A DNA stretch of 64,000 bases from Fulvivirga ligni. GTDB lineage: Bacteria > Bacteroidota > Bacteroidia > Cytophagales > Cyclobacteriaceae. Below the pieces are notes generated by a model that was not told the DNA's origin, did not search any database, and saw only the letters and a list, made by a program, of their open reading frames with translations. Made by a program: the position numbers and the translations under genes. Below, in pieces: positions 21,910 to 44,881 of the stretch; the first letter of the stretch is position 1; the number at the start of each line of letters is the position of its first letter. The DNA lies in assembly GCF_021389935.1 (NCBI RefSeq), contig NZ_CP089979.1, positions 2,585,001 through 2,649,000 of the forward strand, in the 5' to 3' direction.

Positions 21910-22812
21910 CTAGAAATATCTTTCGCTCAGGAAGTGAAAGTCAAAGATTTCAAAGTCAACTCCAAGGGTGATTTCATGGGTTGAATAGCTGGTGCCTACG
22001 GAGTTATTTCCAGGCACTTCAAATACATAACCCAGTCGAAAATGATCTTTGAAATTGAATTGGGCCAATAGGCCATAAGTGTTAAAGTTTCGGCTAAATA
22101 CGCCGGCTGTATACTTGTCATGAATGACCACACTGGCATTATAGTCTACCGATAGGGGAGCATTAGATACACCTTTGAGAAGAACGGAAGGTTTTAAAGC
22201 TAATTCGGCATTTAGGTGATAAACATAACCGGCGGCCAGGTACACATGACGTTGATAAATTTCCCCTTCTAAATTGCCAAAATCCGCCGTACTATTGATC
22301 ATTCTGGGTATGGAAAGACCTAGATAATAATCTTTTGCCTTTAAGGCTACACCAGCACCAAAGTTGAACTTTGAAAAATTTTGGTCTCCTTCAAATAGCT
22401 TGTCAGGATCTTTTACGTTGAGCTCGCTGTTGCTCTCTTTGTAACCGACTACTCCAGCCTGTAAGCCAAATGAGAACGTAGCATCGCCTAAATCAATTTT
22501 GTAAGATCCTGTGGCGCTAAATTCTGTATTAGTGATATTAGCTATGCCATCTCTAACGAAGATTAATCCAACCCCAACTTTATTGTCTACCAGCGAAGTA
22601 TGCGCTGTAAAGCTGGTAGTTTCGGGAGCTCCGCTAAATCCGCTCCACTGGCTCCGATGACTTAAGGTAGCGTTAAATACATTATTGATTCCTGAATAAG
22701 CAGGATTGAGCACTAAAGGGTTATTCAGATATTGGGCATGAAGTGGATCTTGCTGGCTATAACCGGTCACATAGGTGACAATCATAAGTATTGGAAGTAG
22801 AAGTTTTTTCAT
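21910..22812 (-). CDS. PorP/SprF family type IX secretion outer-membrane protein
   Basis: A 300-residue predicted outer-membrane beta barrel. The signal peptide is residues 1-19, ending in GYSQ. The family hallmark follows at once: DPLHAQYLNNPLVLNPAYSG, then SHRSQWSGF. PorP/SprF proteins act with the T9SS; SprF of Flavobacterium is needed for surface display of SprB. The ATG overlaps the stop of the upstream type B cargo gene in an ATGA, so translation is coupled. This is probably the dedicated partner for that cargo's export or attachment. Confidence 0.9.
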   Translation of the reverse strand: MKKLLLPILMIVTYVTGYSQQDPLHAQYLNNPLVLNPAYSGINNVFNATLSHRSQWSGFSGAPETTSFTAHTSLVDNKVGVGLIFVRDGIANITNTEFSATGSYKIDLGDATFSFGLQAGVVGYKESNSELNVKDPDKLFEGDQNFSKFNFGAGVALKAKDYYLGLSIPRMINSTADFGNLEGEIYQRHVYLAAGYVYHLNAELALKPSVLLKGVSNAPLSVDYNASVVIHDKYTAGVFSRNFNTYGLLAQFNFKDHFRLGYVFEVPGNNSVGTSYSTHEITLGVDFEIFDFHFLSERYF

Positions 22813-25469
22813 AGTCCTCTTTTTAGTACCACGTTCCCTTTATAAGTGCCTGAAGATGTTTTAATCTTATAGAAGTAGATGCCGGATGGCAGGTCTTTCC
22901 CTTTGTTACTGGTGCCATCAAAGCGAGTTAAGTCATTGTCATAATCAACAGCATCATAAACCAAATCACCCCATCTGTTATAGAGCTCCACTTTATTAGG
23001 TAGTGATATGTTTTGAATGTCCCAATAATCATTAGCTCCATCACCATTGGGAGATATGGCTGTATAAATGTTAATATCTGAATTTGGAGGTTCTGTGCCC
23101 ACCGTAATGGTCCAGCTGGTTAGCTCTGCATTATTATGGGTTGGATCTGTATTGTCATAATCAGTGGCGTATACTTCAAGCGTTTTAATGGTGGCTTGAG
23201 CATTTTCGTTGCTGTTTTTGTAGATCAAGCTTTGCAGGGCATCCATATACTCTGAAATTTCTGCACGGCCACTGAAAACTAATTCTTCCGTGGAGGCATT
23301 GAAAGATCCGGTGATGTTATCCGTATTGGTGAACTCCAGAATGTCTTCATCGGCATCATAGCCAGAGGTAAATCTTACCACTGCACTAATAATCAGATCA
23401 TCGTCTGTATCTGTAATGGCCAGGTTTGAGGCAATTTCAATGGCTGTATCTTCCGTTGGGTTATAATTCAGATCGGTGAGTCCTGTTATGCTTGGAACCT
23501 CGTTCTGGTTTTCGTAGTATTTTATTTGCCCAGAATATGAGCCCACGAGTATATCTAAATCGCCATCACCATCAATATCCTGAAAAACAGGGGCTTTGGA
23601 TACTTCATCATCACTTCTCTCCATGAAGGTCACTGGATCAGCAAACTGAGGAGCAGTGGGTGTACCTATGTTTTGTAGCATATGAACCATGCCGTATTTT
23701 ATCCCCAGAAAGGCATCCAGATCTCCGTCATGATCAATATCTGCGAAAGCTATATTAACATCATAACCAAAGGAGGTCGATGTTAAAGGGTCTGATTCAT
23801 CAATTTTTACATTATAGACGCCGTTATCATTAATATAAAATTGTAATAATCCATCATATCCGCTTATAAATACGTCTAAGTCTCCATCACTATCTATGTC
23901 AGTGAAATTTAGGTCTTCCAGGAAAAATGATTGATCAACATCCTTAAAAGGGTTATTATCGGTAGATGTCTGATTCTCGTAAGAATCAGCAGATCTCGCG
24001 AAGTACATCAGATCATAAGAGAAATAGGCATAGCTGGTGAAAATATCCTGATCGCCATCTTTATCATAATCAACCAGAAAGCTTTTAAAGCGGCCAGCAT
24101 CAAATCCGATTTGAAAACTGAGATCTTCTATAAAATCATCAGATTCAGCATATTTAAAATCACCGGTATTCTCATAGTATTTACAGTTAGCGAACTGATT
24201 GTTATACTTATTGCCTGAAATGAAAACATCAAGATCGCCATCGTTATCCATATCTACCAGCTCAGGATTCGAATAACTCATCACATCCACTCCATCCACC
24301 GGGTTTGCAAGGCCCTCCTTCAGTTCCATCTGGAAATCGCCATTGTTTTTTATGTAAAATAATGGGCCAGCTTCTGAATAACCTGAATATGTAGTAAAAC
24401 CTGATATAACATCCAGGTTGCCATCATCATCTAAATCAGCAAATATGGGGGAGGCGTTATATTCGTCAATGCCTACATTCAGTAATGGATTTCCCTTTTT
24501 GGTAGCAGGGTTCCAGGGGTTAGGTTCAAGGGTGTATTCATCATTATTGTTGATGTATAACTCAAAATCACCATTATTCTTACCAATGAAAAGGTCCATG
24601 TCTCCATCATCATCAATATCTGTCATCATAGGAGCGGCAAAAACATATGACTGGATATTTCTGAATGGAGAAACGGCATCTAGTTCTTTTTCAAAAACAT
24701 TGTTATCATTTTTAAAATAAAGGACTGAGCTACCTGATTCATAGCTGGCTGATCTTCCAATTAATAAATCCAAATCGCCATCGCTATCTGCGTCAGCAAA
24801 ATGCGGATGTATATTAGCCGAAAAGTATGAACTTGAGAAATTTTGACCTGCAAAAGGGTTAGCATCGTCATCTCTCGTGAAACTTCCGTTGTTATTATCA
24901 AAGTAAATTAGATTTCCTGCCTGGTTTCCCACAAATAAATCCATGTCACCATCACCATCTAGGTCGAAGAAGGCCGGTGAAGCGTTGCCACCTACCCTCA
25001 CTTGTTTAAAGGGATTGTCCTCATCATTCACCGAGTTGAATCTAGGCTCCGTAGCAGTGCCAATGTTTTCGAAGAGGTGCACATTGCCGTACTTATCGCC
25101 ATCTACCAGATCAAAGTCGCCATCATCATCAAAATCAAAAAGGGCAGGTGCATTTACAAGAGATGTATTAACCGGAGGTGGTAAAGGATTCTTTAAAGGA
25201 TTATTTACAAATGGACCAAGCTGCTGTGCCTGAGCAGCGGTGGCACTTAGTATTAAACTTAAAGAGCCAGCGGCCACTCCTAGTTTCAATTGTAGGCCGA
25301 GAGCCTTTAATCTTTTGTATAGCTGCTCAACCTTTTTGATTAAGGAAAATTGCTTTCTTTTAGAAAACTGATAGAAACGCCCTGACTTTAAATTCTTGTC
25401 GAGCCTCCCTTTGAACTTACGATACTTCTGTAAAGTTTCGCTGTAGAAGGTTTGATGGTAGCGATGCAT
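22809..25469 (-). CDS. Large calcium-repeat surface protein with T9SS type B sorting domain
   Basis: An 886-residue secreted protein. It has an unusually long, basic N-terminal extension (about residues 1-60, rich in Lys, Arg and Tyr) before the hydrophobic signal core LGVAAGSLSLILSATAAQA, with likely cleavage after residue 81. Residues about 90-650 carry roughly ten FG-GAP/VCBS units with a calcium-type loop such as DLDGDGDMDLFVGN, DIDDDGDMDLFIG and DIDGDGDLDILVG, consistent with a beta-propeller pair or rod. A cadherin-like region follows (about 655-790). The last 85 residues are the gliding-motility-associated C-terminal (type B) domain: SPNGDGANDYWDI, VELYNRWGDLVY, LPSGIYFYKI, VLKRGL. The gene is the first of a coupled pair with the PorP/SprF gene. 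Confidence 0.9.
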   Translation of the reverse strand: MHRYHQTFYSETLQKYRKFKGRLDKNLKSGRFYQFSKRKQFSLIKKVEQLYKRLKALGLQLKLGVAAGSLSLILSATAAQAQQLGPFVNNPLKNPLPPPVNTSLVNAPALFDFDDDGDFDLVDGDKYGNVHLFENIGTATEPRFNSVNDEDNPFKQVRVGGNASPAFFDLDGDGDMDLFVGNQAGNLIYFDNNNGSFTRDDDANPFAGQNFSSSYFSANIHPHFADADSDGDLDLLIGRSASYESGSSVLYFKNDNNVFEKELDAVSPFRNIQSYVFAAPMMTDIDDDGDMDLFIGKNNGDFELYINNNDEYTLEPNPWNPATKKGNPLLNVGIDEYNASPIFADLDDDGNLDVISGFTTYSGYSEAGPLFYIKNNGDFQMELKEGLANPVDGVDVMSYSNPELVDMDNDGDLDVFISGNKYNNQFANCKYYENTGDFKYAESDDFIEDLSFQIGFDAGRFKSFLVDYDKDGDQDIFTSYAYFSYDLMYFARSADSYENQTSTDNNPFKDVDQSFFLEDLNFTDIDSDGDLDVFISGYDGLLQFYINDNGVYNVKIDESDPLTSTSFGYDVNIAFADIDHDGDLDAFLGIKYGMVHMLQNIGTPTAPQFADPVTFMERSDDEVSKAPVFQDIDGDGDLDILVGSYSGQIKYYENQNEVPSITGLTDLNYNPTEDTAIEIASNLAITDTDDDLIISAVVRFTSGYDADEDILEFTNTDNITGSFNASTEELVFSGRAEISEYMDALQSLIYKNSNENAQATIKTLEVYATDYDNTDPTHNNAELTSWTITVGTEPPNSDINIYTAISPNGDGANDYWDIQNISLPNKVELYNRWGDLVYDAVDYDNDLTRFDGTSNKGKDLPSGIYFYKIKTSSGTYKGNVVLKRGL

Positions 25470-33897: not shown

Positions 33898-34677
33898 TTA
33901 TAAATCATTAAAAAAATTATCGAGATGAAACAGATGATCATTTAATATTTTCATGCTCGCAATAAATATCAGAATGGCAGTGGTGCGCTGTATGGTTCTG
34001 TTGTTAAACTTCATCACCGAAAGCCTAGAGCCAATTTGTCCTCCCAGGAAAACGGCTAAAAGCAGCGGCCAGGCCCACTCAAGGTCAATTTCTAAGGGAT
34101 GTTGAAACCACTGTCCTACCAGGCCGGCTATTGAATTTACCAGGATGAAGAGACTGGAAATTGCGGCTATTCTCTTGGCTTTGTTCCAGTTGATGAAATT
34201 GAGAACTGGTGACAGGAAAATGCCACCACCTATGCCTACCATCCCAGATATAAATCCAATAGCTCCACCTATTCCGGAAGCGATGTAAGCATTTCTATTT
34301 TCTAATCTGCTCTCGGATAAGGTTTTAGTGTTTTTAAACCATAACAATATGGCTGCTAATAGCAGTGCGAAGCCGAGAATGATGAATATGAGTTTGGCTC
34401 TCAAAGGCAGATAGCCGCCAATAAAGGCTAAAGGCACACTGGCTAATACCAAAGGTAAGGAGCGTCTTAAGTTTAAATATCCTTGTTGGTAGAAGATAAT
34501 AGTGCCACTTGTGACTACAATTATATTGCACATCAGGGAAGTAGATCGGAGTGTGAAGAGGTCAACACCAGCCAGAACAAGAATGGCCAAATAGCTTGAT
34601 CCACCTCCAAATCCTACTGATGAATAGAATATGGCTACCAGAAAAAAGAATATGGCCAGGTAAAACGGATCTTCCAT
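33898..34677 (-). CDS. TauE/SafE-family anion exporter
   Basis: 259 residues with about eight membrane spans and the two internal glycine-rich repeats of the family (VGFGGGSSYLAIL and GMVGIGGGIFLSPVL). Members export sulfite, sulfoacetate or related organosulfur anions. Its start codon overlaps the moaA stop in TAATG, so the two are translationally coupled. That link may point to sulfite or another oxyanion handled by a molybdoenzyme, but no such enzyme is in the window. Confidence 0.88.
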   Translation of the reverse strand: MEDPFYLAIFFFLVAIFYSSVGFGGGSSYLAILVLAGVDLFTLRSTSLMCNIIVVTSGTIIFYQQGYLNLRRSLPLVLASVPLAFIGGYLPLRAKLIFIILGFALLLAAILLWFKNTKTLSESRLENRNAYIASGIGGAIGFISGMVGIGGGIFLSPVLNFINWNKAKRIAAISSLFILVNSIAGLVGQWFQHPLEIDLEWAWPLLLAVFLGGQIGSRLSVMKFNNRTIQRTTAILIFIASMKILNDHLFHLDNFFNDL

Positions 34678-35663
34678 TATCCTCCTATGGTTGACATTGA
34701 TTCTTCAACATTGGTGCTGCGTGCTGCTTCGGCAGCATGGCCATCTTTGTGCCTGTGTGTAAGAGCATGTGTAATAGCCTGTTTTAACTCTAAATCGCTA
34801 CCGCCCGATCTTAATATAGCTTTCAGGTCTAGCTGTGTCTGATCGTAAAGACAGGTTTTAATATTACCCTCAGAGGTAAGACGTATTCTGTTGCAGCTGC
34901 CGCAGAACGTTCTCGTGTAAGCAGCAATAATGCCTATATTCCCCTGATATCCAGGTATTTGATAATTGGAGGAGGTGCTAAATTGAGGGTCTTGAAGCTT
35001 GGTAAGTGAGCCATAGTGAGTATTAAGAGTATTTAAAATTTCACGATGATTCCACTTTATAGAATTATGACCATTTCCATTAAATGGCATTTCTTCAATA
35101 TATCGAATAGATAGCGGTTTGTCCTTTGTAAGGTCGGCCATCGGGATGATGTCATCTTCATTCTGCCCGTCCATCACCACCATATTTATTTTGGTGTCAA
35201 TGCCTGAATCCAACAGTTTATTCAGAGTTTCTTCCACCTGAGTGAATACGTCTCTTCGTGTTATTTTAAAGAATCGCTCAGGATTTAAAGAGTCAAGACT
35301 TAAATTGATGGAGGCTATACCTAATGCTTTTAGCTCATCTATATATTGGGCAGTGAGAACGCCGTTGGTTGTGATGTGAAGTTCATTTAGACCAGCAGTT
35401 TCGCTGAGCTGCCTTAAAAAACTCATCAGATCTCTTCTTACAAAAGGTTCACCTCCCGTAATCCGAATCTTGTTAACGCCCATTTCACAGAATACCTGCG
35501 CGAGTTTGAGCATTTCTTCGTAGGTGAGTAGTTCTTTTTTAGGTAGGTAATTGATTCCCTCAGCAGGCATACAGTAGTAACACCTTAGGTTGCAACGGTC
35601 CGTTACAGCCATCCTTAAGTAGGTGATAGGTCTGCCAAAATTATCAATTATACCTTGAGACAT
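34677..35663 (-). CDS. moaA: GTP 3',8-cyclase (molybdenum cofactor step 1)
   Basis: A 328-residue radical SAM enzyme that, with MoaC, turns GTP into cyclic pyranopterin monophosphate. The first [4Fe-4S] ligands are Cys24, Cys28 and Cys31 (DRCNLRCYYCMP). The second, substrate-binding cluster is in FCGSCNRIRLTSEGNIKTC. The protein ends in the conserved Gly-Gly (MSTIGG) needed for activity. It is coupled to the downstream TauE/SafE gene and lies 16 bases after the sterol-desaturase-like gene. The other cofactor genes lie on both sides of a foreign-looking operon 2-9 kb away. Confidence 0.96.
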   Translation of the reverse strand: MSQGIIDNFGRPITYLRMAVTDRCNLRCYYCMPAEGINYLPKKELLTYEEMLKLAQVFCEMGVNKIRITGGEPFVRRDLMSFLRQLSETAGLNELHITTNGVLTAQYIDELKALGIASINLSLDSLNPERFFKITRRDVFTQVEETLNKLLDSGIDTKINMVVMDGQNEDDIIPMADLTKDKPLSIRYIEEMPFNGNGHNSIKWNHREILNTLNTHYGSLTKLQDPQFSTSSNYQIPGYQGNIGIIAAYTRTFCGSCNRIRLTSEGNIKTCLYDQTQLDLKAILRSGGSDLELKQAITHALTHRHKDGHAAEAARSTNVEESMSTIGG

Positions 35664-35679
35664 AATTCAAATGTAAGCG

Positions 35680-36597
35680 TTAGTGATCAGATTGTCCATC
35701 AGATTCACTTGTTTTCCCGAAGCCATATGTAACCTGCCCTTTAAAATCATGTGGAAAGTGCTGATCTTCATCAATTCCAATCTCTATATCTCTGCCATTA
35801 TATGGAATATAGGCCGTTCCAAAAAGATAGTCCCAAATGCTCAGCGACAGGCCGAAATTGACACCATATCTTCTTTCTGCAGGCAATGTCTTGGCATGAT
35901 GCCATATATGCATGGACGGGTTGTTGAATATATATTTTAAAGGGCCAATGTTTAAATTAAAGTTAGCGTGATTCCAATGGCCTATAAATAGCGCGAAAAT
36001 GTGCACTAAAAAGAAATCATCTATACCGAAGCCTATCATGGCCAGTGGTATGTATTCTATGGTTCTATAGGTAACAGTTTCCATCCAGTGAAAACGTAAA
36101 TGGGCGGCAAAACCCATCTGCTCCACAGAGTGATGAATTTTATGAAATTGCCATAGCCTGGGGCTGTAGTGAAGTAGTCGGTGCACCCACCAGTGAATAA
36201 AATCCCTAAGTATAAAGAGTATCAAAAGTTGAAGTCCTCTAGACCAGCTGCCTATTTCAATGGCCACTAGATTCTTTAAGCCAAAAAGAGCTAAAAAATC
36301 ATTGAAGAGATTTACAAATACATCTGAAACAGCATTGTAAACTACAAGAGAGAAAAGGAAGAAGTTAAAGAACATGTAGAATAGATCTAGCCAAAAATCT
36401 TTACGAAATTTAGGTTGATCTTTTCTCCATGGTTGCACCCATTCTAATAAAAAAAATATAAGACTTATTATAATGAGTCCCCAAAAGTAATTAGCGTACC
36501 AGGGTTTGTAAGAATAATTAAAAATCATCTCGTTTTTCAGGTATTCAAAGTAGCCTATATAGGCATTTTTTGCTATTTCGAGGTATTTGCTAACCAT
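35680..36597 (-). CDS. Sterol desaturase / fatty acid hydroxylase family membrane protein
   Basis: 305 residues with four or so membrane segments and the eight-histidine di-iron motif set: HWWVHRLLHY, FHKIHHS and HIWHHAK, with an additional His in HWNHANFN. Members hydroxylate or desaturate lipids using oxygen. N-terminal spans are near 33-52 and 75-100. The gene is upstream of moaA on the same strand (16-base gap), so it may be co-transcribed with moaA, although its role is unrelated to molybdopterin. It is divergent from moaD, with a 62-base gap. Confidence 0.9.
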   Translation of the reverse strand: MVSKYLEIAKNAYIGYFEYLKNEMIFNYSYKPWYANYFWGLIIISLIFFLLEWVQPWRKDQPKFRKDFWLDLFYMFFNFFLFSLVVYNAVSDVFVNLFNDFLALFGLKNLVAIEIGSWSRGLQLLILFILRDFIHWWVHRLLHYSPRLWQFHKIHHSVEQMGFAAHLRFHWMETVTYRTIEYIPLAMIGFGIDDFFLVHIFALFIGHWNHANFNLNIGPLKYIFNNPSMHIWHHAKTLPAERRYGVNFGLSLSIWDYLFGTAYIPYNGRDIEIGIDEDQHFPHDFKGQVTYGFGKTSESDGQSDH

Positions 36598-36659
36598 CCT
36601 GTAAATTTGGATAATATTTCTATGAACTGATTATTTTAAATAATAGTTTAGTTCTCAAT

Positions 36660-36905
36660 ATGAAATTGAAGATATTATTATTTGGTATTACAAAAGACAT
36701 TATTGGCTCTGAAAGTCATGAACTTACAGTAGATAAAAAGTCTGCTAAAGTGAAAGATTTGCGAGCTGTTTTGGTAGCTGATTATCCTGATTTGGAGAAG
36801 TTAAATTCTTTGATGATTGCGGTAAATAACGAGTATGCCGAAGATAACCAAGCTATAGAAGAAACTGACGAAATAGCCTTAATTCCTCCTGTTAGTGGAG
36901 GTTGA
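36660..36905 (+). CDS. moaD: Molybdopterin synthase small subunit
   Basis: An 81-residue ubiquitin-like sulfur carrier. The beta-grasp pattern (MKLKILLFGITKDIIG ... IALIPPVSGG) ends in the Gly-Gly that is adenylated and thiocarboxylated to donate sulfur to the pterin. It ends 3 bases before moaE, the other synthase subunit, so the two are one transcription unit. No MoeB-type adenylyltransferase is found in the window. Confidence 0.95.
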   Translation: MKLKILLFGITKDIIGSESHELTVDKKSAKVKDLRAVLVADYPDLEKLNSLMIAVNNEYAEDNQAIEETDEIALIPPVSGG

Positions 36906-36908
36906 TAT

Positions 36909-37319
36909 ATGATTAAAATAACCGAGCACCCATTAAACCCAGATGACGTAGTAGGTACAGTTTATGATGACGAAGCTGGCGCTACTAACGTGTTTATTGG
37001 TACAGTAAGAGCCCACACCAAAGATAAGAAGGTAAGGAAACTTGAATTCGAGACTTACCTGAACATGGCTATTAAGGAAATTGAGAAAATCATAGAAGAT
37101 GTTAAGGCTAAATGGCCGATCCATCATATCACCATTCATCATAGAGTAGGGGTGTTGACTATTGGAGAGGTAGCCGTGGTAATAGCCGTAAGTTCACCCC
37201 ACAGAAGAGAGAGCTTTGCAGCCTGTGAGTATGCCATTGACACCCTAAAGAAAACTGTACCTATCTGGAAAAAGGAAGTTTTTGAAGATGGTGAGCAGTG
37301 GGTGAGTGCTCATCCTTAA
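36909..37319 (+). CDS. moaE: Molybdopterin synthase catalytic subunit
   Basis: 136 residues that insert the dithiolene sulfurs into precursor Z together with MoaD. Signatures are GATNVFIGTVRAHTKDKKV, LEFETYLNMA, HRVGVLTIGE, SPHRRESFAACEYAIDTLK and the lysine-bearing TVPIWKKE. The size is normal. Downstream it is followed within 70 bases by the ECF-sigma operon, without a recognisable terminator. Confidence 0.96.
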   Translation: MIKITEHPLNPDDVVGTVYDDEAGATNVFIGTVRAHTKDKKVRKLEFETYLNMAIKEIEKIIEDVKAKWPIHHITIHHRVGVLTIGEVAVVIAVSSPHRRESFAACEYAIDTLKKTVPIWKKEVFEDGEQWVSAHP

Positions 37320-37366
37320 TTTTTTATAAAAAAAACTGTATCTTTTTTTAATTCTTGCATTAATAG

Positions 37367-37386
37367 GGTTGTAAATTAAAACAACC
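37367..37386. repeat. Inverted repeat at the head of the ECF sigma operon
   Basis: GGTTGT and ACAACC are perfect 6-bp arms around an 8-base A/T spacer. They sit between moaE and the sigma gene, directly in front of the TTG at 37387 and 42 bases before the preferred ATG. It could be an operator for a dimeric regulator, or an RNA hairpin. No T run follows, so it is unlikely to be a terminator. Confidence 0.35.
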
Positions 37387-37428
37387 TTGGGAAATTCATT
37401 ACGATTAACTTATTCGAAAAACCTGGAG

Positions 37429-37968
37429 ATGGAGCGCTCTGAGTTGGATCTCATAAATGAGTCCAAGCAGAATCCGCGAGCGTTTGAACCACTATATAAG
37501 AAGTATTTTGATCAACTATACTCCTTTATTTTCTATCGCGTAAATGACGCCGATACCGCTAAAGAAATTACTTCTCAGGTTTTCCTCAAAGCCTTATCGA
37601 AAATTCATCAATTTCAGTACAAGGGTCTGCCTTTTTCTTCGTGGCTATATAGAATAGCTATTAATGAATGTAATATTCATTACAGAAGTTCTAAACATTC
37701 TCGCATTGTCGTCCTAGATGAGAAAACCATTGACTACTTAACTAGTGAAATGGGAACCAGCACCATATTCGATGAAGATCTCTTTCAGCAACTAGAGCTT
37801 GTCATTCAAAAGCTTAAGCCTGAGCAGGTTCAACTTGTTCAACTGAGGTTCTTTGACGAGTTGTCATTCAAAGAGATAGGGCAAATCTTAGATGTAACTG
37901 AAAATAATGCCAAGGTGAAATTGTATCGGGTTTTAGATAAAATCCGCTCTAAAATGAATGTCCAATGA
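37429..37968 (+). CDS. ECF RNA polymerase sigma factor
   Basis: 179 residues from the ATG at 37429 (MERSELDLINESKQNP). A TTG at 37387 would add 14 residues that do not look like the family. Region 2 is FEPLYKKYFDQLYSFIFYRV, with the core-binding and -10 recognition helix through TAKEITSQVFLKALSKI and FSSWLYRIAIN. Region 4 is the helix-turn-helix LRFFDELSFKEIGQILDVTENNAKVKLYRVLDKI. It has no extra C-terminal domain. Its stop overlaps the start of the next gene in ATGA; that gene encodes a one-TM protein in the usual anti-sigma position. Confidence 0.92.
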   Translation: MERSELDLINESKQNPRAFEPLYKKYFDQLYSFIFYRVNDADTAKEITSQVFLKALSKIHQFQYKGLPFSSWLYRIAINECNIHYRSSKHSRIVVLDEKTIDYLTSEMGTSTIFDEDLFQQLELVIQKLKPEQVQLVQLRFFDELSFKEIGQILDVTENNAKVKLYRVLDKIRSKMNVQ

Positions 37969-38732
37969 AAAAGTATAGAGTTTTAAAAAATCGGAAGCCG
38001 TTAACCAACTCTGTTTTATCTGAGGCGAAGGACTTTGATGGGCTGATGGATCAGTTTGAGAGTAGAAAACAGCTTAAAATAGATCGTAAGTTCTATATAA
38101 GCACGGGCATAACCATAATAGTGGTAATAATTTTTATGGCATTTCTTAATGAAGTCTTTGTGGTAAAGCCAGCCAATGATGAGGATGCTTTTGAACAAAA
38201 TAAATTACCTGAAAAGTCTATGCCGCTGGAGGCAAAGAAGCCGCAACTGGAAGTTGAAGTGCTTGATAGTGGTAAGGGTCGAGACTTGCATCAACCTTCA
38301 AAGTTACCCCAACCGGAAGTCGTAAAACCAGCGCTAAAAGAAACCCGGAAAAATGAGAGTGTGGCAGTAAAGGATTTACCAAAGTCACAAGTTGATGATA
38401 CTTCAAATCCGGAAGTTACTAAAGAGGAATATGAGTATGTTGAGGCCAGGCCAATAGACGGTATGGAGGAGTTTTATTCCTATTTTGATCATAACCTGAA
38501 ATATCCCCGATCAAGTGTCAAAGATTCGATCAGTGGCGTCACGCTTGTGTCCTTTTTTATAGATGTTTCTGGCCGACCTGTTGATATTTCAATTGATAAG
38601 TCTCTTGGGGCTGCATTTGATGAAGCGGCCATTGATGTGATTAAAAATATGCCTGATTGGCACCCGGCCACTATTAATGGAAAAGCCGTGAAAACTAAAT
38701 TGAGTGTTCCTTTAACTTTTAATCTGAAATAA
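37965..38732 (+). CDS. Single-pass membrane protein with TonB C-terminal domain, in anti-sigma position
   Basis: 255 residues. A cytoplasmic basic N-terminal stretch (1-42) precedes one membrane helix (about 43-66: FYISTGITIIVVIIFMAF). A Pro/Lys/Glu-rich periplasmic spacer follows (about 70-160), then a TonB C-terminal domain (about 170-255: YSYFDHNLKYPRSSV, GVTLVSFFIDVSGRP, LGAAFDEAAIDVIKNMPDW, PLTFNLK). Position and topology are those of an anti-sigma factor, but the periplasmic sensor is a TonB-type domain that normally contacts outer-membrane transporters. It could therefore sense or energise an outer-membrane partner encoded downstream. The gene is 1 base from the cargo gene. Confidence 0.85.
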   Translation: MKKYRVLKNRKPLTNSVLSEAKDFDGLMDQFESRKQLKIDRKFYISTGITIIVVIIFMAFLNEVFVVKPANDEDAFEQNKLPEKSMPLEAKKPQLEVEVLDSGKGRDLHQPSKLPQPEVVKPALKETRKNESVAVKDLPKSQVDDTSNPEVTKEEYEYVEARPIDGMEEFYSYFDHNLKYPRSSVKDSISGVTLVSFFIDVSGRPVDISIDKSLGAAFDEAAIDVIKNMPDWHPATINGKAVKTKLSVPLTFNLK

Positions 38733-38733
38733 T

Positions 38734-41115
38734 ATGAGATACTGTATTTTTATTGTCTTCAGCTTAATAACCATCGGCCTGAGGGCGCAAAATTTCATCC
38801 CTAAAGATTCCGTTGAGATAGGACTCACACAAGTAGTACACTCTGAATGGAATGATCTGAATAATGACGGATTATTAGATTTCATTTTCATTTCCCATGA
38901 TGGCAAGTTCATGAAGGTCCTAAACTCAGATTCCTTGTATCTGGATACATTATTTTCTTCTTACCAATTCACTGATATTTTTAAGGTGGATGATATGAAT
39001 AATGATAATCTTCTGGATGTGATTATGCCTATTCACCATTTAGGAGAAAGTAAGTTGGCCATTTTCTATCAAAAGCAAGATAGCACATTTGATTTACCAT
39101 ATTTCCCCGGTGGGGCCAAGATTAAAGATTATGCTATTGCTGATTTTAATAATGATGGAAGAAAAGATATCGTTTTTACAGATTCACTCAGTAATTCTGA
39201 CCTTAATTTTCTGTATCAGTCATCATCTAATTTTGAATTAATATCAAGTTCAAGTGAAACGGTTAACATATCCTCAATACAAATACTTGACTATGATAAT
39301 AACGGCTATAAGGATTTACTTTATTCTGATGCTTCAGCAGATGAAACTCATGTTTTTTTAAATGAGTGTGAAGAATGGAGGGACTCACTACTATTTTCTC
39401 TGAGCTATCTTGAAATGGATTACACCGATTTTAATGCAGATGGTAAACCTGATCTCCTTCTTGGTGGTACCTCAAGCAGTAAGTCGTTTTTCAGTATATT
39501 ATATGGAGAGTCGCCTGAAGAAATAGATTCACTTTCAGGTAAAAGCTATGATCAGATTTTTATAGCAGATATGAATAGTGATGGTATTGTAGACGTCTCT
39601 CTGTATTCTTCAAGCGGCTCACAAACGGTACTAAGTGATAGTATAAACCAAAGTTATTTTTGGGATAATACTGACAATGGAAATGTACTTTCATACGGAG
39701 ATATTGACTGGGATGGGGATTTAGATAGGGCAATTTTAAGAAATGGATACTTGGTATGGATGGAGAATCTCACTGTACAAAATTTAGCACCGTTGATACC
39801 ATATAATAGTTTCGTTTTTCAGAAAGGCGATGGAGATGTTATAATCTCTTGGGAATCAGGTGGTGATGACCATACTCCGAATGCCAGCTTGACCTTTGAT
39901 GTTTTTGTTGGAAGTGATTTAAGTTCTAATGAGTTTTTATCATCTAATCTTGATTTAAAATCAGCAGAACGGCTTAAAGTGGCGCATGGAAACTCTGGTT
40001 ATCAAAGGCAAATTTTCGTCAATAGTTTAAGCCCAGGAGAATATTTTTATGGTATTCAATCGGTAGATAATTCTTTTTACTCTGGCTTTAGACCAGGTCC
40101 GGGAAATGGTAATAGTTGTAATCAATTACCCATAGAATGTGGCTCATTCATAATTTGCGAACAAATTAGTTATCACACATACCCCACTTGTGATGGAGAT
40201 GTAGATATTCAAGTGGCAGAAAATGTGGGCTGGTATTCAGAGACCTATGGTTATTTGGGGTTTACGAATCATATTGAGTACACTGTAACAGCATCGGATG
40301 TATTATACACTTCTAAGCCTGACCCTTCAAGTTGTGATGATATGCAGGTTTATATAATCACCTTTAATGAGCCATATTTATTAAATGACACCACTATTTG
40401 TGTAGACCAAACCTTAAATCTCCAGTTTCCTTTTGACCCTGAGAGTGTTGTGTGGTCATCAGAGTCGGCTGGTGTTATTTCGAATTCAAACTTCTTTAGT
40501 TATCAATTTAGTGAAGCGGAAACCATATATTATACATATACCTTTCAAGGGTGCACTGTTAGCGACTCTATTTTAGTTGATGTTAGTGAACCCGTTTTAA
40601 ACCTGGTAGGTAATAGTTTTCAGACTTTAAGAGGGGATGGGGTGCAGCTCAGTGCTTCGGGTGCTGAAAGTTATCAATGGACACCTTCATCAGGGCTTAA
40701 TAACCCTAATATCCCAAACCCATTCGCTACACCAAATGAGAGCACCACATATATGGTTATAGGTGTAGATTCTATCGGATGCTCTGCTGAGGGTGAAGTA
40801 CTTGTTATTGTTGTAAAACAGGCATTCTTACCCAATCTGTTTAGTCCTAATGGAGACGGGAACAATGATGTGTTCTTAGCATATGGATTGCAAAATGTTG
40901 AAGATTTTTATTTTAAAATTTATGATCGTTCTGGAGTAACGGTATATGAAACTAGTAGCTATCAAGAGTTGACTGGAAAGGGCTGGGCTGGAGACTATCA
41001 GGGTAAGATGTTGGCTACGGGGGTGTATTATTGGAAGGTCACTGGTAGCTATAATGATGGACAACCAGTGTTATTTAATGAAAAACGAGAGGGAGCCATT
41101 CATTTAATGCGATGA
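38734..41115 (+). CDS. Large surface protein with FG-GAP-like repeats and T9SS type B sorting domain
   Basis: A 793-residue exported protein. The signal peptide is residues 1-18 (ending GLRAQ). About seven propeller-type repeats cover residues 35-345, for example NDLNNDGLLDFIFI, ADFNNDGRKDIVF, TDFNADGKPDLLLGG and GDIDWDGDLDRAIL. A fibronectin-like domain (about 365-445) and Ig/PKD-like domains follow. The C terminus is the gliding-motility-associated type B domain (LFSPNGDGNNDVF, FKIYDRSGVTVYE, LATGVYYWKV, AIHLMR). It ends in an ATGA overlap with a PorP/SprF-OmpA gene. Lower Asp density in the repeats than the 22.8-25.5 kb cargo suggests weaker calcium dependence. Confidence 0.9.
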   Translation: MRYCIFIVFSLITIGLRAQNFIPKDSVEIGLTQVVHSEWNDLNNDGLLDFIFISHDGKFMKVLNSDSLYLDTLFSSYQFTDIFKVDDMNNDNLLDVIMPIHHLGESKLAIFYQKQDSTFDLPYFPGGAKIKDYAIADFNNDGRKDIVFTDSLSNSDLNFLYQSSSNFELISSSSETVNISSIQILDYDNNGYKDLLYSDASADETHVFLNECEEWRDSLLFSLSYLEMDYTDFNADGKPDLLLGGTSSSKSFFSILYGESPEEIDSLSGKSYDQIFIADMNSDGIVDVSLYSSSGSQTVLSDSINQSYFWDNTDNGNVLSYGDIDWDGDLDRAILRNGYLVWMENLTVQNLAPLIPYNSFVFQKGDGDVIISWESGGDDHTPNASLTFDVFVGSDLSSNEFLSSNLDLKSAERLKVAHGNSGYQRQIFVNSLSPGEYFYGIQSVDNSFYSGFRPGPGNGNSCNQLPIECGSFIICEQISYHTYPTCDGDVDIQVAENVGWYSETYGYLGFTNHIEYTVTASDVLYTSKPDPSSCDDMQVYIITFNEPYLLNDTTICVDQTLNLQFPFDPESVVWSSESAGVISNSNFFSYQFSEAETIYYTYTFQGCTVSDSILVDVSEPVLNLVGNSFQTLRGDGVQLSASGAESYQWTPSSGLNNPNIPNPFATPNESTTYMVIGVDSIGCSAEGEVLVIVVKQAFLPNLFSPNGDGNNDVFLAYGLQNVEDFYFKIYDRSGVTVYETSSYQELTGKGWAGDYQGKMLATGVYYWKVTGSYNDGQPVLFNEKREGAIHLMR

Positions 41116-42668
41116 GACTACTTTTAATCATTTTATTTACCATTTTTTATACCAGTAGCACTGCTCAGTATTTTCAATTTTCTCAGTATGACTTCACTCC
41201 TGAGAGGGTTAATCCGGCATTTATATCTGCTTCTAATCATCTCTCTGGCAGTATTATATATCGAAGACAAAGTGTATCAGAAACATTAAATATTAATACT
41301 GCAGATGTTTTTGTAAGTTATCCGCTTTTGACTAGAAGAAACAAGAGATGGTCAGCGATAGGCCTTTCATTTCTGGATGATAGATCTGGATTAACCAATA
41401 TCTACAAGGTAAACGAAATGGCTCTTACGTATGCATTATATGTTCCTGTAACAAGGAATGATGAGGTGAGTCTTGGGGCAAAAGCATTATACCAAAATAG
41501 ACGCTTTTCTTTAGATGGGCTTTATACCGGGAGTCAATATGTGCCAGATCGAGGGTTTCTACCTAGTGTTGATAATGGGGAGGAGGTTGAGAGCTTTCGG
41601 AGACGATTATATACGCTTAGCTTTGGTTTGGGGTGGAGGCATGTTGATCGCTATGGTCATCAGCAAAGCTATGTTGGGATATCGTTTTTTGATTTTAATA
41701 AACCACAAGAGTCCTTCTATGGAGAAGATGCTCAGCTACCCTCTACGGTGGTGTTAAGTGGTAGCTTTCTTGCGTATGAGCAGGGACCATTAAAGGTGTT
41801 TCCTGAAGCTATCGTAACGAAAAGTTCCTCTAAGGCGGTACTGAACCTCGGCGCTATCACCAGGTATGATCTCATGAGTGGTAGGACGTGGAACGGATCC
41901 GTAAATATAATTACTAAATATAATACAGGCGGTTATGTAATTGGAGGCCTTCAACTTGAAAAAACTGATTTTAAAATAGGATTTAGTTATGACCTTTCTG
42001 TTAGTTCCAAGCCTCTAAATAATGCATTTGAAGTGGGGCTGGCCTATAAAACAGAGAGAACTGCAAAAAGAAGAAATAGGGTGGGCAAACGACGAATATC
42101 TAAAAATAAAAGAAGGAAAGGAAAACGATATAGAAGGAAGGAGCCAGACACAAAGAGCAAAGTGACAAAGACTACTGAGGACGTTAGAAATAAGAGTCAA
42201 GAAAAGGATTCTGTGTTTACAGAAACAGAAGTAACAGAGGCTCAGGAGGATAAAGTTATTGTTGTTGAAGATGCTGATTCAGTTATTACAAGTTCCAGAG
42301 TAGGCGACTTTAAACATCATTCATTGAAATTAGATGAAACCAACGTATTGTTCCATTTCGATTTTAATAGTGTGGATATTGATCAGGAATCTCTAGATTA
42401 CATTCGTGAATTATCCGAGGTATTAAAGAGTGATCCTAATCTTAAGGTGAAAATTGTCGGACATACTGATAGTCGGGGTAGTGCTGAGTATAATAAAAAT
42501 CTATCTCTGACCAGATGTAATTCTGTTAAGAACTTATTACTACAATATGGTGTCAATGAAGATCGAGTAGAGGTGGTAGGTATGGGTGAAGAAGAGCCTT
42601 CAGAAGATAATAATACGGCCGCAGGCAGGGCGAAAAACAGAAGGGTTGAATTTATTTTGCACTATTAA
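41112..42668 (+). CDS. PorP/SprF-family barrel fused to an OmpA peptidoglycan-binding domain
   Basis: 518 residues. The signal peptide is 1-18. The PorP/SprF-type barrel spans about 19-315 and opens with FSQYDFTPERVNPAFISAS. A very basic linker (about 317-345, dense in Arg and Lys) and an acidic stretch (about 350-400) follow. The OmpA C-terminal domain (about 405-518) has VLFHFDFNSVDI, VGHTDSRGSAEYN, LSLTRCNSVKN and AGRAKNRRVEFIL. The OmpA domain should bind peptidoglycan, anchoring the outer-membrane barrel. It is coupled to the upstream type B cargo by an ATGA overlap. The last 17 bases overlap the convergent mobA gene. Confidence 0.9.
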   Translation: MRLLLIILFTIFYTSSTAQYFQFSQYDFTPERVNPAFISASNHLSGSIIYRRQSVSETLNINTADVFVSYPLLTRRNKRWSAIGLSFLDDRSGLTNIYKVNEMALTYALYVPVTRNDEVSLGAKALYQNRRFSLDGLYTGSQYVPDRGFLPSVDNGEEVESFRRRLYTLSFGLGWRHVDRYGHQQSYVGISFFDFNKPQESFYGEDAQLPSTVVLSGSFLAYEQGPLKVFPEAIVTKSSSKAVLNLGAITRYDLMSGRTWNGSVNIITKYNTGGYVIGGLQLEKTDFKIGFSYDLSVSSKPLNNAFEVGLAYKTERTAKRRNRVGKRRISKNKRRKGKRYRRKEPDTKSKVTKTTEDVRNKSQEKDSVFTETEVTEAQEDKVIVVEDADSVITSSRVGDFKHHSLKLDETNVLFHFDFNSVDIDQESLDYIRELSEVLKSDPNLKVKIVGHTDSRGSAEYNKNLSLTRCNSVKNLLLQYGVNEDRVEVVGMGEEEPSEDNNTAAGRAKNRRVEFILHY

Positions 42669-43194
42669 TATTCCTCAACTTCTCACTATCATCCTCAGAA
42701 AGCTCTATCACCTTGACATCACGTGTGTCGAGAAAGGTTTTAGGGCTTTTTTGTCCTGATTTGTAGTAAGCCGTTAGATCAGAGAAACAGGAATTCTCCC
42801 AAATCGCACAGAGGGGTTCTATGAAGCCTTTTTTGAAGCAGGTGGCGGCTTTGTGAGTATCCCTCATGGAAATCAGCTGGTTTAGTAGCTGATCATCCAA
42901 ATAGGGCATATCACAAGCTATCACAAGCCAGCTGACATCGGGAAAAGCCTCATGAGCAGCTATTATTCCGGTGAGCGGTCCTTCGCAAAGCTGGTCTTCA
43001 ATATAGGGGAGATTGACATCAGCTTTTTGAGCAGGGTTACAGCTAAGAAATACTTTTTCGCAGTATTTTTCCAGTAAATTGAATGCATGATCTCGCTGCG
43101 GTACATCATGATAACTGATCAGACTTTTATCAGCACCCATTCTTGAGCTTTTACCTCCTATGAGCACCAGGCCATACAAATCATGCTTGCTCAT
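42652..43194 (-). CDS. mobA: Molybdenum cofactor guanylyltransferase
   Basis: 180 residues that attach GMP to molybdopterin to form the dinucleotide cofactor. The nucleotide-binding motif is LIGGKSSRMGADKSL near the N terminus, and the metal-binding region is VIACDMPYLDD. The length matches MobA. Its start overlaps moaC's stop by 4 bases (ATGA), so moaC-mobA is a coupled pair. Its presence suggests the strain uses bis-MGD-type molybdoenzymes. Confidence 0.93.
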   Translation of the reverse strand: MSKHDLYGLVLIGGKSSRMGADKSLISYHDVPQRDHAFNLLEKYCEKVFLSCNPAQKADVNLPYIEDQLCEGPLTGIIAAHEAFPDVSWLVIACDMPYLDDQLLNQLISMRDTHKAATCFKKGFIEPLCAIWENSCFSDLTAYYKSGQKSPKTFLDTRDVKVIELSEDDSEKLRNINSAK

Positions 43195-43670
43195 TCCCTT
43201 TTAAAGTCTTTCTTGCCTCCGGTTTTACTCATCAGTTGGGTTTGCACAATCTTAATGTCATGAGATAACGCCTTGCACATATCGTACACGGTGAGTGCGG
43301 CTACGCTGGCGCCGGTAAGCGCTTCCATCTCTACACCTGTTTTAGAGGTTGTGATGCACTGGCAGTTGATAATGATTTCATCGTTAACAACCTTTATATC
43401 TATTTTGCAATCATCAAGAGGGATAGGATGACAGAAAGGAATAAGTTCTGATGTTTTTTTAGAAGCCATTACTCCCGCTATAATGCTGGTGTGAAAAACG
43501 GGGCCTTTCTTGGTTTGAATGTCATTATCTTTGAGCTGGCTTAATATTTCTCGGCTGACTATTAACTTACTCTGGGCTTGTGCTGTTCTACGAGTGATAG
43601 ATTTCAGGGAGACATCCACCATCTGAGGGTTGCCTTCATTAGAGATATGTGTAAATTTAGACTCTTCCAT
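43191..43670 (-). CDS. moaC: Cyclic pyranopterin monophosphate synthase
   Basis: 159 residues from the ATG at 43670; the frame is open to a TTG 9 bases further up, but the ATG gives the standard N terminus (THISNEGNPQMVDVSLK). MoaC completes the conversion of GTP to precursor Z after MoaA. Family motifs are SELIPFCHPIPL and GVEMEALTGASVAALTVYD, plus the catalytic-lysine region MSKTGGKKDF at the C terminus. It is divergent from moeA with only 20 bases between the start codons, so both promoters must lie inside or at the edge of coding sequence. Confidence 0.95.
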   Translation of the reverse strand: MEESKFTHISNEGNPQMVDVSLKSITRRTAQAQSKLIVSREILSQLKDNDIQTKKGPVFHTSIIAGVMASKKTSELIPFCHPIPLDDCKIDIKVVNDEIIINCQCITTSKTGVEMEALTGASVAALTVYDMCKALSHDIKIVQTQLMSKTGGKKDFKRE

Positions 43671-43690
43671 ATTTAACAAAACTACAAAAA

Positions 43691-44881
43691 ATGATTCATG
43701 TTGATGAAGCCAGCCGCATAGTGCTGTCTAATACATTTAAACCCGGTACAGAAAAAGTGAAAATCGATGATGCTCTTAACCGTATTCTTAAAGAAGAAGT
43801 GGTGGCAGATAGAGATTTTCCACCTTTCAATAGGGTGATGATGGATGGGATAGCCATTAAATCTGATGAGTGGGAGAGTGGTAGAAGAGAATTTTACATT
43901 GAAGGGGTGCAGACAGCAGGGGCTCCGCAAATGGCGCTTAGTGAATCAGTTAATTGCCTGGAAGTAATGACAGGAGCTATGCTGCCACAATATACAGATG
44001 TAGTAATCCGCTATGAGGACGTGGAAATTCATGATAGCATAGCAAAAGTTCTAATTGATGAAATCACTCCATTACAGAATATCCATTTAAAAGGTACTGA
44101 TAGGCTTGAAGGGGAATCGCTCATTTCAAATCATAAAGTATTATCTCCAGCGGAAATAGCAGTGTTGGCCACGGTAGGAAAAGCTGAAGTAGAAGTACAG
44201 CAGTTAATAAAAGTAGCCATTGTAAGTACAGGAGATGAATTGGTGAGCGTTGACCAGACACCCAACCCTTATCAGATAAGAAGGTCTAATAGCCACGCAC
44301 TATTAGCTGCATTGAAGCAGCATGGATTTACAGCCACTATCTTTCATATTAATGACGATGAAATTACATTAAAGAAAAAACTTCAGGAGATATTGAATGA
44401 TTATGATGCTATTTTATTGAGTGGAGGAGTATCTAAGGGAAAAAAGGATTATGTTCCTGCGGCTCTCGAAAGCTTAAAAGTGGAAAAGCTCTTTCATAAA
44501 GTAGCCCAAAGACCAGGTAAGCCCTTTTGGTTTGGTAAGAATGATAATACTACCGTTTTCGCCTTGCCAGGCAATCCTGTGTCTACGTTCATGTGCTTTT
44601 ATCGCTATGTTCTGCCATGGCTTTATGCATCTTATGAAATTGATGTACAGCCACGCACAGCTCAGCTGGCAGAAGATTTTAAGGTGGTGCCAGATCTAAC
44701 CTATTTTCTGCAAGTGAAAATTAAAAGGTCTGAGTCAGGAGAGGTGATTGCTGTGCCAGTTTCGGGGCGTGGTTCTGGTGATTTGGCTAACCTTTTAGAG
44801 GCTGATGCCTTCTTGGAATTACCTCAAGGCAAAACAGAATTTAAGGCCGGAGAGGTGTATCATAGAATTGACTACAGGTAA
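43691..44881 (+). CDS. moeA: Molybdopterin molybdenumtransferase
   Basis: 396 residues that insert molybdate into adenylylated molybdopterin. Signatures are DRDFPPFNRVMMDGIA (domain with the active-site cleft), VMTGAMLPQYTDVVIRYE, VSTGDELV, LSGGVSKGKKDYV and ALPGNPVSTFMCFYRY. The domain order is that of a complete MoeA. It lies divergently from moaC-mobA. MogA/MoaB, needed for the preceding adenylylation, is not in the window. Confidence 0.95.
   Translation: MIHVDEASRIVLSNTFKPGTEKVKIDDALNRILKEEVVADRDFPPFNRVMMDGIAIKSDEWESGRREFYIEGVQTAGAPQMALSESVNCLEVMTGAMLPQYTDVVIRYEDVEIHDSIAKVLIDEITPLQNIHLKGTDRLEGESLISNHKVLSPAEIAVLATVGKAEVEVQQLIKVAIVSTGDELVSVDQTPNPYQIRRSNSHALLAALKQHGFTATIFHINDDEITLKKKLQEILNDYDAILLSGGVSKGKKDYVPAALESLKVEKLFHKVAQRPGKPFWFGKNDNTTVFALPGNPVSTFMCFYRYVLPWLYASYEIDVQPRTAQLAEDFKVVPDLTYFLQVKIKRSESGEVIAVPVSGRGSGDLANLLEADAFLELPQGKTEFKAGEVYHRIDYR

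What the first reader, a model, noticed from the sequence alone, without database searches (positions are those of the whole stretch)
37387..42668. Self-contained ECF sigma, TonB-domain, T9SS cargo and PorP/SprF-OmpA operon
Four genes run without spacing: sigma factor, ATGA overlap, a one-TM protein with a TonB C-terminal domain, a 1-base gap, a 793-residue type B T9SS cargo, ATGA overlap, and a PorP/SprF barrel fused to OmpA. The TonB-domain protein occupies the slot of an anti-sigma factor. Classical systems (FecIR-type) have the anti-sigma factor contact an outer-membrane TonB-dependent transporter; here the TonB-like domain may itself reach the PorP/SprF-OmpA barrel. The sigma factor could then report export or loss of the surface protein. 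I know the parts as families, but not a characterised system with this composition.
Basis: partly seen in the sequence, partly recalled or inferred. Interest (0 to 1): 0.72.

Follow-up and report, generated by a model that had tools for sequence, protein, structure and literature searches.

The report
Sigma operon wired to surface display
A conserved four-gene bacterial operon joins a gene switch, a membrane protein with a TonB-like arm, a secreted surface protein and its outer-membrane anchor, probably letting the cell sense its own surface display and switch the operon by itself.

Summary
Four abutting genes lie at 37387-42668: ECF sigma, one-TM TonB_C protein, FG-GAP type B T9SS cargo, PorP/SprF-OmpA fusion. 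The arrangement recurs in the same order at 36 loci (window included): 20 genera of one family, plus one genome of another. Orphan cargo/PorP-OmpA pairs without the sigma also exist.

Three new results support a regulatory unit. (1) The TonB_C protein's first ~48 residues plus TM helix are a segment unknown to Pfam and NCBIfam. In 38 searched genomes it occurs beside this sigma family (one hit is cut by a contig end), with or without TonB_C behind it: the candidate anti-sigma segment. (2) A bipartite ECF-type promoter (here TGTATCTTTT-N12-ATTA) is matched upstream of the sigma in 35 of 36 operons. It is the window's best site, and other genomic matches are few. (3) Most sigma-linked PorP-OmpA proteins share a short motif before the OmpA domain that 13 of 14 orphans lack: a possible TonB_C docking peptide.

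Anti-sigma activity, docking and the sign of the signal are inferred, not shown. I rate it a new variant of ECF cell-surface signalling.

The parts
37337..37362 (+). Predicted ECF promoter of the operon: TGTATC (-35 type) ... ATTA (-10 type), ending 24 bases before the sigma start codon
   Evidence: Top-scoring site of both strands of the 64 kb with a model trained without any full-operon locus (21.7; 99.9th percentile of shuffles 16.1); only exact match of the pattern in the window
37387..37968 (+). ECF sigma factor, 193 aa, TTG start
   Evidence: Sigma70_r2 8.1e-12, r4_2 1e-10; orthologue 66% identical in G006
37965..38732 (+). One-TM TonB_C protein, proposed anti-sigma factor, 255 aa
   Evidence: TonB_C 1.1e-15 at residues 177-254; N-in by charge, most hydrophobic stretch at residues 49-67
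37965..38108 (+). Cytosolic N-segment of the TonB_C protein (residues 1-48), proposed sigma-binding segment
   Evidence: Alignment A1; in 38 genomes found beside this sigma family, one hit cut by a contig end; no Pfam or NCBIfam family recurs
38493..38726 (+). TonB C-terminal domain (residues 177-254)
   Evidence: Pfam PF03544; profile A2 matches solved TonB chains, best 2k9k TonB2 E 1.1e-8
38734..41115 (+). Type B T9SS cargo, 793 aa, with FG-GAP repeats
   Evidence: FG-GAP_3 1.9e-19, CHU_C 1e-16, TIGR04131 1.6e-11
40828..41055 (+). Type B C-terminal secretion domain of the cargo (residues 699-774)
   Evidence: TIGR04131 44.2 bits, cut-off 35
41112..42668 (+). PorP/SprF barrel fused to an OmpA-like peptidoglycan-binding domain, 518 aa
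   Evidence: PF11751 residues 17-312, OmpA residues 416-510; TIGR03519 128.3 bits
42294..42311 (+). Juxta-OmpA motif SRVGDF (residues 395-400), candidate TonB_C docking peptide
   Evidence: Motif in the 40 residues before OmpA in 28 of 35 sigma-linked and 1 of 14 orphan PorP-OmpA proteins; expression written after seeing the sequences

Best explanation
An autoregulated cell-surface signalling operon built on the type IX secretion system. The ECF sigma transcribes its own four-gene operon from the promoter at 37337-37362. The TonB_C protein is the anti-sigma factor: its ~48-residue cytosolic segment binds the sigma, one TM helix crosses the inner membrane, and a linker of about 90 residues carries the TonB_C domain to the outer membrane. 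The FG-GAP cargo is exported by the T9SS and held by its own PorP barrel, whose OmpA tail grips peptidoglycan, giving a static surface complex. TonB_C docks on the periplasmic side of PorP-OmpA, most likely on the conserved segment before the OmpA domain. Docking keeps the anti-sigma intact; when the complex is unbuilt, unloaded or disturbed by ligand or force, the anti-sigma is lost and the sigma rebuilds the complex. Shown by sequence: order, domains, topology signature, promoter match, co-inheritance. Inferred: sigma inhibition, docking, and the sign of the signal (the least certain step).
For: Order conserved at 36 loci with close spacing. N-segment: 39 hits over 38 genomes, 37 directly after a sigma (judged by coordinates), 1 after a sigma cut by a contig end, 1 itself cut by a contig end; 2 hits in the own genome against 39 match rows to the sigma. 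The N-segment is kept when TonB_C is absent or replaced (short forms and, in L124, a cytochrome c domain). Sigma and N-segment distances correlate, r 0.86, n 63, maximum of 999 permutations 0.10. Promoter: the first 11 operons score 17.2-26.5 with a model trained without them; of 25 further operons, never used for training, 24 score 13.0 or more against a 99th percentile of 12.8 from shuffles of the first 11 upstream regions. N-in charge in 35 of 36, linker median 89 residues. Juxta-OmpA motif 28 of 35 against 1 of 14. A separate TonB_C gene lies within 700 bp of 17 of 43 short N-segment loci. SprA, the T9SS channel, is in the genome.
Against: No experiment. The N-segment matches no known anti-sigma domain and is recognised by the profile in 33 of the 36 full operons only, not in L103, L111 and L238 (L103 is weakly found). 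The juxta-OmpA motif was found by eye and then counted; sigma-linked and orphan proteins are separate groups, so shared ancestry could explain it, and mean conservation of that segment does not separate them (1.83 against 1.88 bits). 26 of 43 short loci have no TonB_C gene within 700 bp (2 of these are cut by contig ends), so the sigma family as such does not need TonB_C. One operon, L238, lacks the promoter (-3.1), and 5 of the 25 later ones, L238 included, stay below the 99.9th percentile of 16.1. The single-sequence fold was useless (pLDDT 37.6).
Confidence: 0.58

Rival explanations
1. The TonB_C protein is a true force transducer (TonB- or TolA-like) that pulls on or positions PorP-OmpA; the sigma only switches the operon on, and the N-segment is a motor or sigma tether.
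For: TonB_C is a good family member. Two related loci, L134 and L140, carry two TonB_C proteins followed by small genes; in L134 the first of these looks ExbD-like to my eye. A published proposal links the Pal-like T9SS protein PorE to TolA/TonB-like force (PMC12204202, passages).
Against: None of 36 predicted TM stretches holds His; 2 of 36, the window among them, hold an acidic residue. E. coli TonB needs a TM His (recalled). None of the four genes is an ExbB or ExbD. A ~48-residue cytosolic extension is not a TonB feature (recalled), and it tracks the sigma.
Confidence: 0.17
2. Sigma and TonB_C protein form an ordinary sigma/anti-sigma pair that senses a general envelope or periplasmic signal; cargo and PorP-OmpA are only output.
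For: The sigma/N-segment pair exists without cargo or PorP at many of the 75 loci read, and many of those carry a related promoter.
Against: At the 36 full operons TonB_C is in the protein that directly follows the sigma, and most of their PorP-OmpA proteins carry a motif that 13 of 14 orphan copies lack. In a Crocinitomicaceae locus (L088, the one of six whose barrel was scanned) the same sigma family sits before a PorG-like barrel, again an outer-membrane T9SS part.
Confidence: 0.18
3. The gene set is only a co-transcribed adhesin operon; the TonB_C protein is a structural tether and no feedback exists.
For: Cargo plus PorP pairs without these regulators occur, e.g. the window's own 21910-25469 pair, own-genome L023 and most of the 13 loci without sigma.
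Against: The N-segment's pairing with this sigma family and its retention in proteins without TonB_C.
Confidence: 0.07

Closest known systems
FecIR / FoxIR cell-surface signalling
   Same: ECF sigma, inner-membrane anti-sigma and outer-membrane partner act in a chain; in Fox the outer-membrane contact protects the anti-sigma from proteolysis (PMC11637429, abstract).
   Different: No FecR domain, no TonB-dependent transducer, no STN signalling domain found here; the periplasmic reader is a TonB_C domain and the outer-membrane partner a PorP-OmpA barrel with a T9SS cargo.
PUMA3 (VreA-VreI-VreR) of Pseudomonas aeruginosa
   Same: A TolA/TonB-like domain modelled in a cell-surface signalling system with an ECF sigma (PMC2729926, passages).
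   Different: There it is on a mostly soluble periplasmic protein joined to a signalling domain, with a separate anti-sigma; here it is fused to the proposed anti-sigma itself.
PorXY-SigP with PorA of Porphyromonas gingivalis
   Same: A surface T9SS CTD protein is proposed to relay a signal to an ECF sigma that controls T9SS genes (PMC7712824 and PMC4800418, passages).
   Different: Goes through a two-component system whose genes lie apart, and the passages name no TonB_C anti-sigma; here all four parts are in one operon.
Type B cargo / PorP / PorE anchoring complexes
   Same: Type B CTD protein held by a PorP-like barrel and tied to peptidoglycan by an OmpA-like domain (PMC9143113, PMC12618676, passages).
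   Different: Here barrel and OmpA domain are one polypeptide, and the pair is wired to a sigma.
SprB-SprF gliding adhesin
   Same: Type B cargo next to a PorP/SprF carrier.
   Different: SprF's Cys-X-Cys tail that links to GldK (PMC12635249, passages) is absent: no Cys-X-Cys after residue 280 in any of the 36 sigma-linked proteins, one of which is cut by a stop. A static complex is expected.
TolA-Pal
   Same: TonB_C-like arm facing an OmpA-like peptidoglycan-binding domain (recalled; discussed for Bacteroidetes in PMC12204202, passages).
   Different: No TolQR-type motor gene among the four; the arm begins in a sigma-linked segment.

Membership tests
ECF sigma factor | Sigma-70 regions 2 and 4 in a short protein | tested here: met
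   PF04542 and PF08281 over cut-off, 193 aa; best NCBIfam model TIGR02952 below its cut-off (125.7 of 206.45)
FecIR-type cell-surface signalling | Sigma of the Bacteroidota model TIGR02985 (taken as FecI-like from recall) | tested here: not met
   74.4 bits, cut-off 126.4
FecIR-type cell-surface signalling | FecR-type anti-sigma | tested here: not met
   Only TonB_C matched in Pfam at E 1 or better
FecIR-type cell-surface signalling | TonB-dependent transducer with signalling domain in the unit | tested here: not met
   No receptor or STN family in Pfam for the four proteins at E 1. NCBIfam lists the receptor MxcH for the TonB_C protein at 19 of 925 bits, confined to the TonB_C stretch
FecIR-type cell-surface signalling | Anti-sigma binds and inhibits the sigma | not testable with these tools
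   Needs two-hybrid or co-purification and a reporter
TonB energy transducer | TonB C-terminal domain | tested here: met
   PF03544 58.2 bits; solved TonB chains matched
TonB energy transducer | Short N-terminus and TM helix with a His for ExbBD coupling (recalled) | tested here: not met
   TM stretch starts at residue 49 here (median 45 over 36); His in it in 0 of 36
T9SS type B cargo | TIGR04131 C-terminal domain and adjacent PorP/SprF gene | tested here: met
   44.2 bits, cut-off 35; PorP gene overlaps by 4 bases
T9SS type B cargo | Secretion and surface display by T9SS | not testable with these tools
   SprA present in the genome
PorP/SprF family | TIGR03519 / PF11751 barrel | tested here: met
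   128.3 bits (cut-off 90.55) and 82.0 bits (cut-off 22.3)
SprF gliding carrier | Cys-X-Cys periplasmic tail | tested here: not met
   0 of 36 sigma-linked proteins after residue 280; one protein, L220, is cut short by a stop
OmpA-like peptidoglycan-binding domain | GHTD..G...N..LS..R signature (significance recalled) | tested here: met
   33 of 36 sigma-linked proteins, the window among them

The most novel reading that the evidence does not exclude
A TonB C-terminal domain used in reverse: not to push energy outward but to read the assembly or ligand state of a T9SS-displayed surface protein on its PorP-OmpA anchor and carry that state inward, through a previously undescribed short anti-sigma segment, to an ECF sigma that controls mainly this display operon. 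The same sigma/anti-sigma core is reused with other periplasmic readers (cytochrome c, a separate TonB, a PorG-linked module), i.e. a modular T9SS-era counterpart of FecIR signalling.
Probability: 0.42. Interest if true: 0.85.

Novelty: new variant of a known kind. Interest (0 to 1): 0.7.

Why it matters
As far as I recall, cell-surface signalling to ECF sigma factors is known almost only through TonB-dependent receptors and FecR-type anti-sigmas. If this reading holds, Bacteroidota have a second design in which the surface-display complex of the type IX system is the sensor and the TonB domain the messenger. It would give type B surface proteins, many of unknown function, a regulatory readout, offer a compact unit for studying how cells know that a surface protein has been exported, and define a new small anti-sigma segment with a predicted cognate promoter.

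Tried and rejected
Regulon beyond the operon: an exact promoter pattern has 3 matches in the own genome against 3 for its backward control. One lies before an L,D-transpeptidase-like gene (named by eye), but relatives in G002 and G006 show no such site upstream on reading: treated as chance. In 12 genomes a narrower pattern gave 23 matches against 9 in the control; by position 10 are the operon's own promoter and 13 are not, so a small wider regulon is not excluded; not followed.

Housekeeping promoter: TATCTTTT resembles the Bacteroidota -7 box (recalled), but related loci carry TGTGAC or TGTACC in its place with nearly the same spacing to (A/G)TTAT, which does not fit that box well.

Structure: the single-sequence model of the TonB_C protein was poor and is not used. 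No fold search was made.

Phylum search with the PorP-OmpA profile: 0 of 295 genomes other than the own, but only 5 candidates per genome were scored, so this is a weak negative.

17 of 68 rows were not opened; frequencies are lower bounds. The 40 opened loci include 15 without a sigma match, of which L214 and L215 are cut by contig ends. In L220 the PorP-OmpA frame is interrupted by a stop.

De novo motif starts from 12 random seeds: 1 reached the promoter motif, the others other words; one of those had a total equal to it (919.9 against 919.6), all were below the hand seed (1042.2).

Molybdenum link: the operon sits between moaE and a mobA-like gene; the same placement is seen by eye in L097, L098 and L100, but other loci have other neighbours; taken as conserved position, not function.

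Full report
1. What is there. The TTG start of the sigma at 37387 is supported by the G006 orthologue, whose N-terminus aligns from its first residue. The genome (G000, 6.5 Mb, one contig) holds the T9SS channel SprA and 18 PorP/SprF matches, two of which are neighbouring pieces of one locus. The window itself has a second FG-GAP type B cargo with a PorP gene at 21910-25469 that has neither sigma beside it nor OmpA domain.

2. Conservation. In a same-genus genome the whole block lies at the same place, after moaE and before a mobA-like gene, with the same junctions; identities are 66% (sigma), 43% (TonB_C protein), 47% (cargo) and 57% (PorP-OmpA). A search of 98 genomes (own included) with the sigma gave 43 genomes with a match at 1e-20. 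I fetched stretches for the 69 match rows outside the own genome and read 75 loci in all, six of them Flavobacteriales/Crocinitomicaceae. Ten have the full order sigma, TM-TonB_C, type B cargo, PorP-OmpA: L097, L098, L100, L103, L104, L105, L107, L111, L131, L148. A family search with the PorP-OmpA alignment A3 found 55 of 245 genomes (own included) with a match at 1e-60, 68 rows. I opened 40 rows not seen before: 25 have the full operon in the same order, 13 have no sigma, 2 are cut by contig ends. With the window that makes 36 full operons: 35 in 20 genera of the family by the handles' genus labels, and one, G093, in another family of the order. In one of them (L220) the PorP-OmpA frame is interrupted. 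A sample of 295 other genomes of the phylum gave none, with shallow scoring.

3. The TonB_C protein. It has an N-terminal stretch of about 48 residues, a TM helix, a linker and the TonB_C domain. Over the 36 proteins the TM stretch starts at residue 45 (median), the charge rule predicts N-in for 35 of 36, the linker is about 89 residues (median; two of the 36 values are spurious because the domain start was misread), no TM stretch has a His and two, the window's among them, hold an acidic residue. A profile of the N-segment finds it in 33 of the 36; L103, L111 and L238 are too divergent. The segment is shared with the proteins that follow the sigma at other loci even where the rest differs: it was found at 64 of 75 loci. 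It can stand alone with its TM (43 short loci, at least one of them shortened by a contig end; 17 have a separate TonB_C gene within 700 bp), be fused to a cytochrome c domain (L124), or to an unmatched domain before an outer-membrane barrel in Crocinitomicaceae; the one barrel scanned, L088, resembles PorG (NF052316, E 1.2e-14, but 54.6 bits, below its cut-off of 130). Searching 38 whole genomes with the alignment of this segment gave 39 hits: 37 directly after a sigma (judged by coordinates), one after a sigma cut by a contig end, one cut by a contig end itself. Many of these loci were in the alignment, so the test is of specificity, not of sensitivity. No Pfam or NCBIfam family recurs among its 36 members, and no solved structure matches convincingly (best E 0.028). 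Distances of sigma and N-segment correlate (r 0.86, n 63), as expected for partners but also for simple co-inheritance.

4. The promoter. Upstream of the sigma genes lies TGT(G/A)(A/T)C(T/C)TTT, usually 8-9 bases, then tgc(A/G)TTAT: 53 of 72 upstream regions score above the 99th percentile of shuffled sequence with a model fitted to them (4 loci with short upstream stretches were dropped). The six Crocinitomicaceae/Flavobacteriales loci and several short-form loci lack it. Trained without the 11 full operons then known, the model scores them 17.2 to 26.5 (99.9th percentile of shuffles 16.1, largest of 2200 shuffles 18.7), and its best site in the 64 kb window, both strands, is 37337. The 25 operons found later were not used for training: 24 score 13.0 or more (99th percentile 12.8), 20 exceed 16.1, L238 has none. 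So the sigma very probably transcribes its own operon. Other exact matches in the own genome are no more frequent than in the control; over 12 genomes there is a slight excess.

5. The outer-membrane end. The OmpA signature is intact in 33 of 36 sigma-linked PorP-OmpA proteins, and the Cys-X-Cys tail of the gliding carrier SprF is absent. In the 40 residues before the OmpA domain, 28 of 35 sigma-linked proteins with a placed OmpA domain have the pattern A-x-(A/V)-G-x-(I/V/L/F) or a near form, 25 of them 19-20 residues before it and often followed by H-E-P; of 14 orphans 1 has it, at another distance. In G000, G006, G016, G037 and G482 the orphan paralogue lacks it while the sigma-linked copy of the same genome has it (in G016 at a distance of 27). 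The expression was written after looking at the sequences, and the two groups are separate kinds, so this is a lead, not proof.

6. Cargo. FG-GAP repeats form the N-terminal part in 34 of 36 by profile (with the window); L111 has an M43 peptidase domain instead, with the type B domain and the operon kept. The displayed function can be exchanged while the wiring stays.

7. Evolution. In a tree of 97 sigma proteins the full operons need 5 changes of label against 29.4 in shuffles; they are spread over deep branches, while the short forms lie mainly in two groups. The root is not known.

8. Reading. Known systems supply each step separately: type B cargo held by PorP and tied to the wall by an OmpA-like domain (PMC9143113, PMC12618676); a T9SS surface protein influencing an ECF sigma (PMC7712824, PMC4800418); an outer-membrane partner protecting an anti-sigma from proteolysis (PMC11637429, abstract and outline); and a TolA/TonB-like domain in a sigma signalling system (PMC2729926). 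Except for PMC11637429 I saw passages only. What differs here is the combination in one operon and the use of a TonB_C domain on the proposed anti-sigma. Nine searches of the open-access library listed no paper that by its title or abstract start describes this combination (in only the top 10-12 of 23-42 papers were listed); subscription papers and preprints were not searchable, and the ECF classification paper I wanted was not held.

9. Verdict. My odds: operon conservation nearly certain, self-transcription about 0.85, anti-sigma role of the TonB_C protein about 0.75, TonB_C docking on PorP-OmpA about even. The sign of the signal is a guess guided by the Fox system.

Noticed in passing
window 21910-25469 (-): A second FG-GAP type B cargo with a PorP gene, without sigma, TonB_C or OmpA domain.
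   Followed up: partly
window 34677-44881: The operon interrupts a molybdenum cofactor gene cluster (moaA-like 34677-35663 minus, moaE 36909, mobA-like 42652 minus, moaC-like 43191 minus, moeA-like 43691); only moaE was checked by family search, the rest named by eye. Same placement by eye in L097, L098, L100.
   Followed up: partly
L051 (G000 591.5-593.1 kb): A sibling locus in the same genome: sigma interrupted by two stops, an intact short N-segment protein and a separate TonB_C protein.
   Followed up: partly
L124: The N-segment fused in a 624-residue protein with a cytochrome c domain, next to the same sigma family: a possible redox-reading variant.
   Followed up: no
L087-L092: Crocinitomicaceae/Flavobacteriales loci: sigma, TM protein (N-segment matched in 5 of 6) with another periplasmic part, then an outer-membrane barrel (PorG-like in L088, the one scanned); they lack the promoter motif of the others.
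   Followed up: partly
L134, L140: Sigma followed by two TonB_C proteins and small genes; the first of these in L134 looks ExbD-like by eye.
   Followed up: no
L102, L108, L125, L166 and similar: Short N-segment loci followed by a ~200-residue exported-looking protein; the one scanned (L108) has no Pfam or NCBIfam match.
   Followed up: no
G503:C9:205944 and G029:C1:1578062: Strong promoter-like sites away from the operon; possible second targets of the sigma.
   Followed up: no
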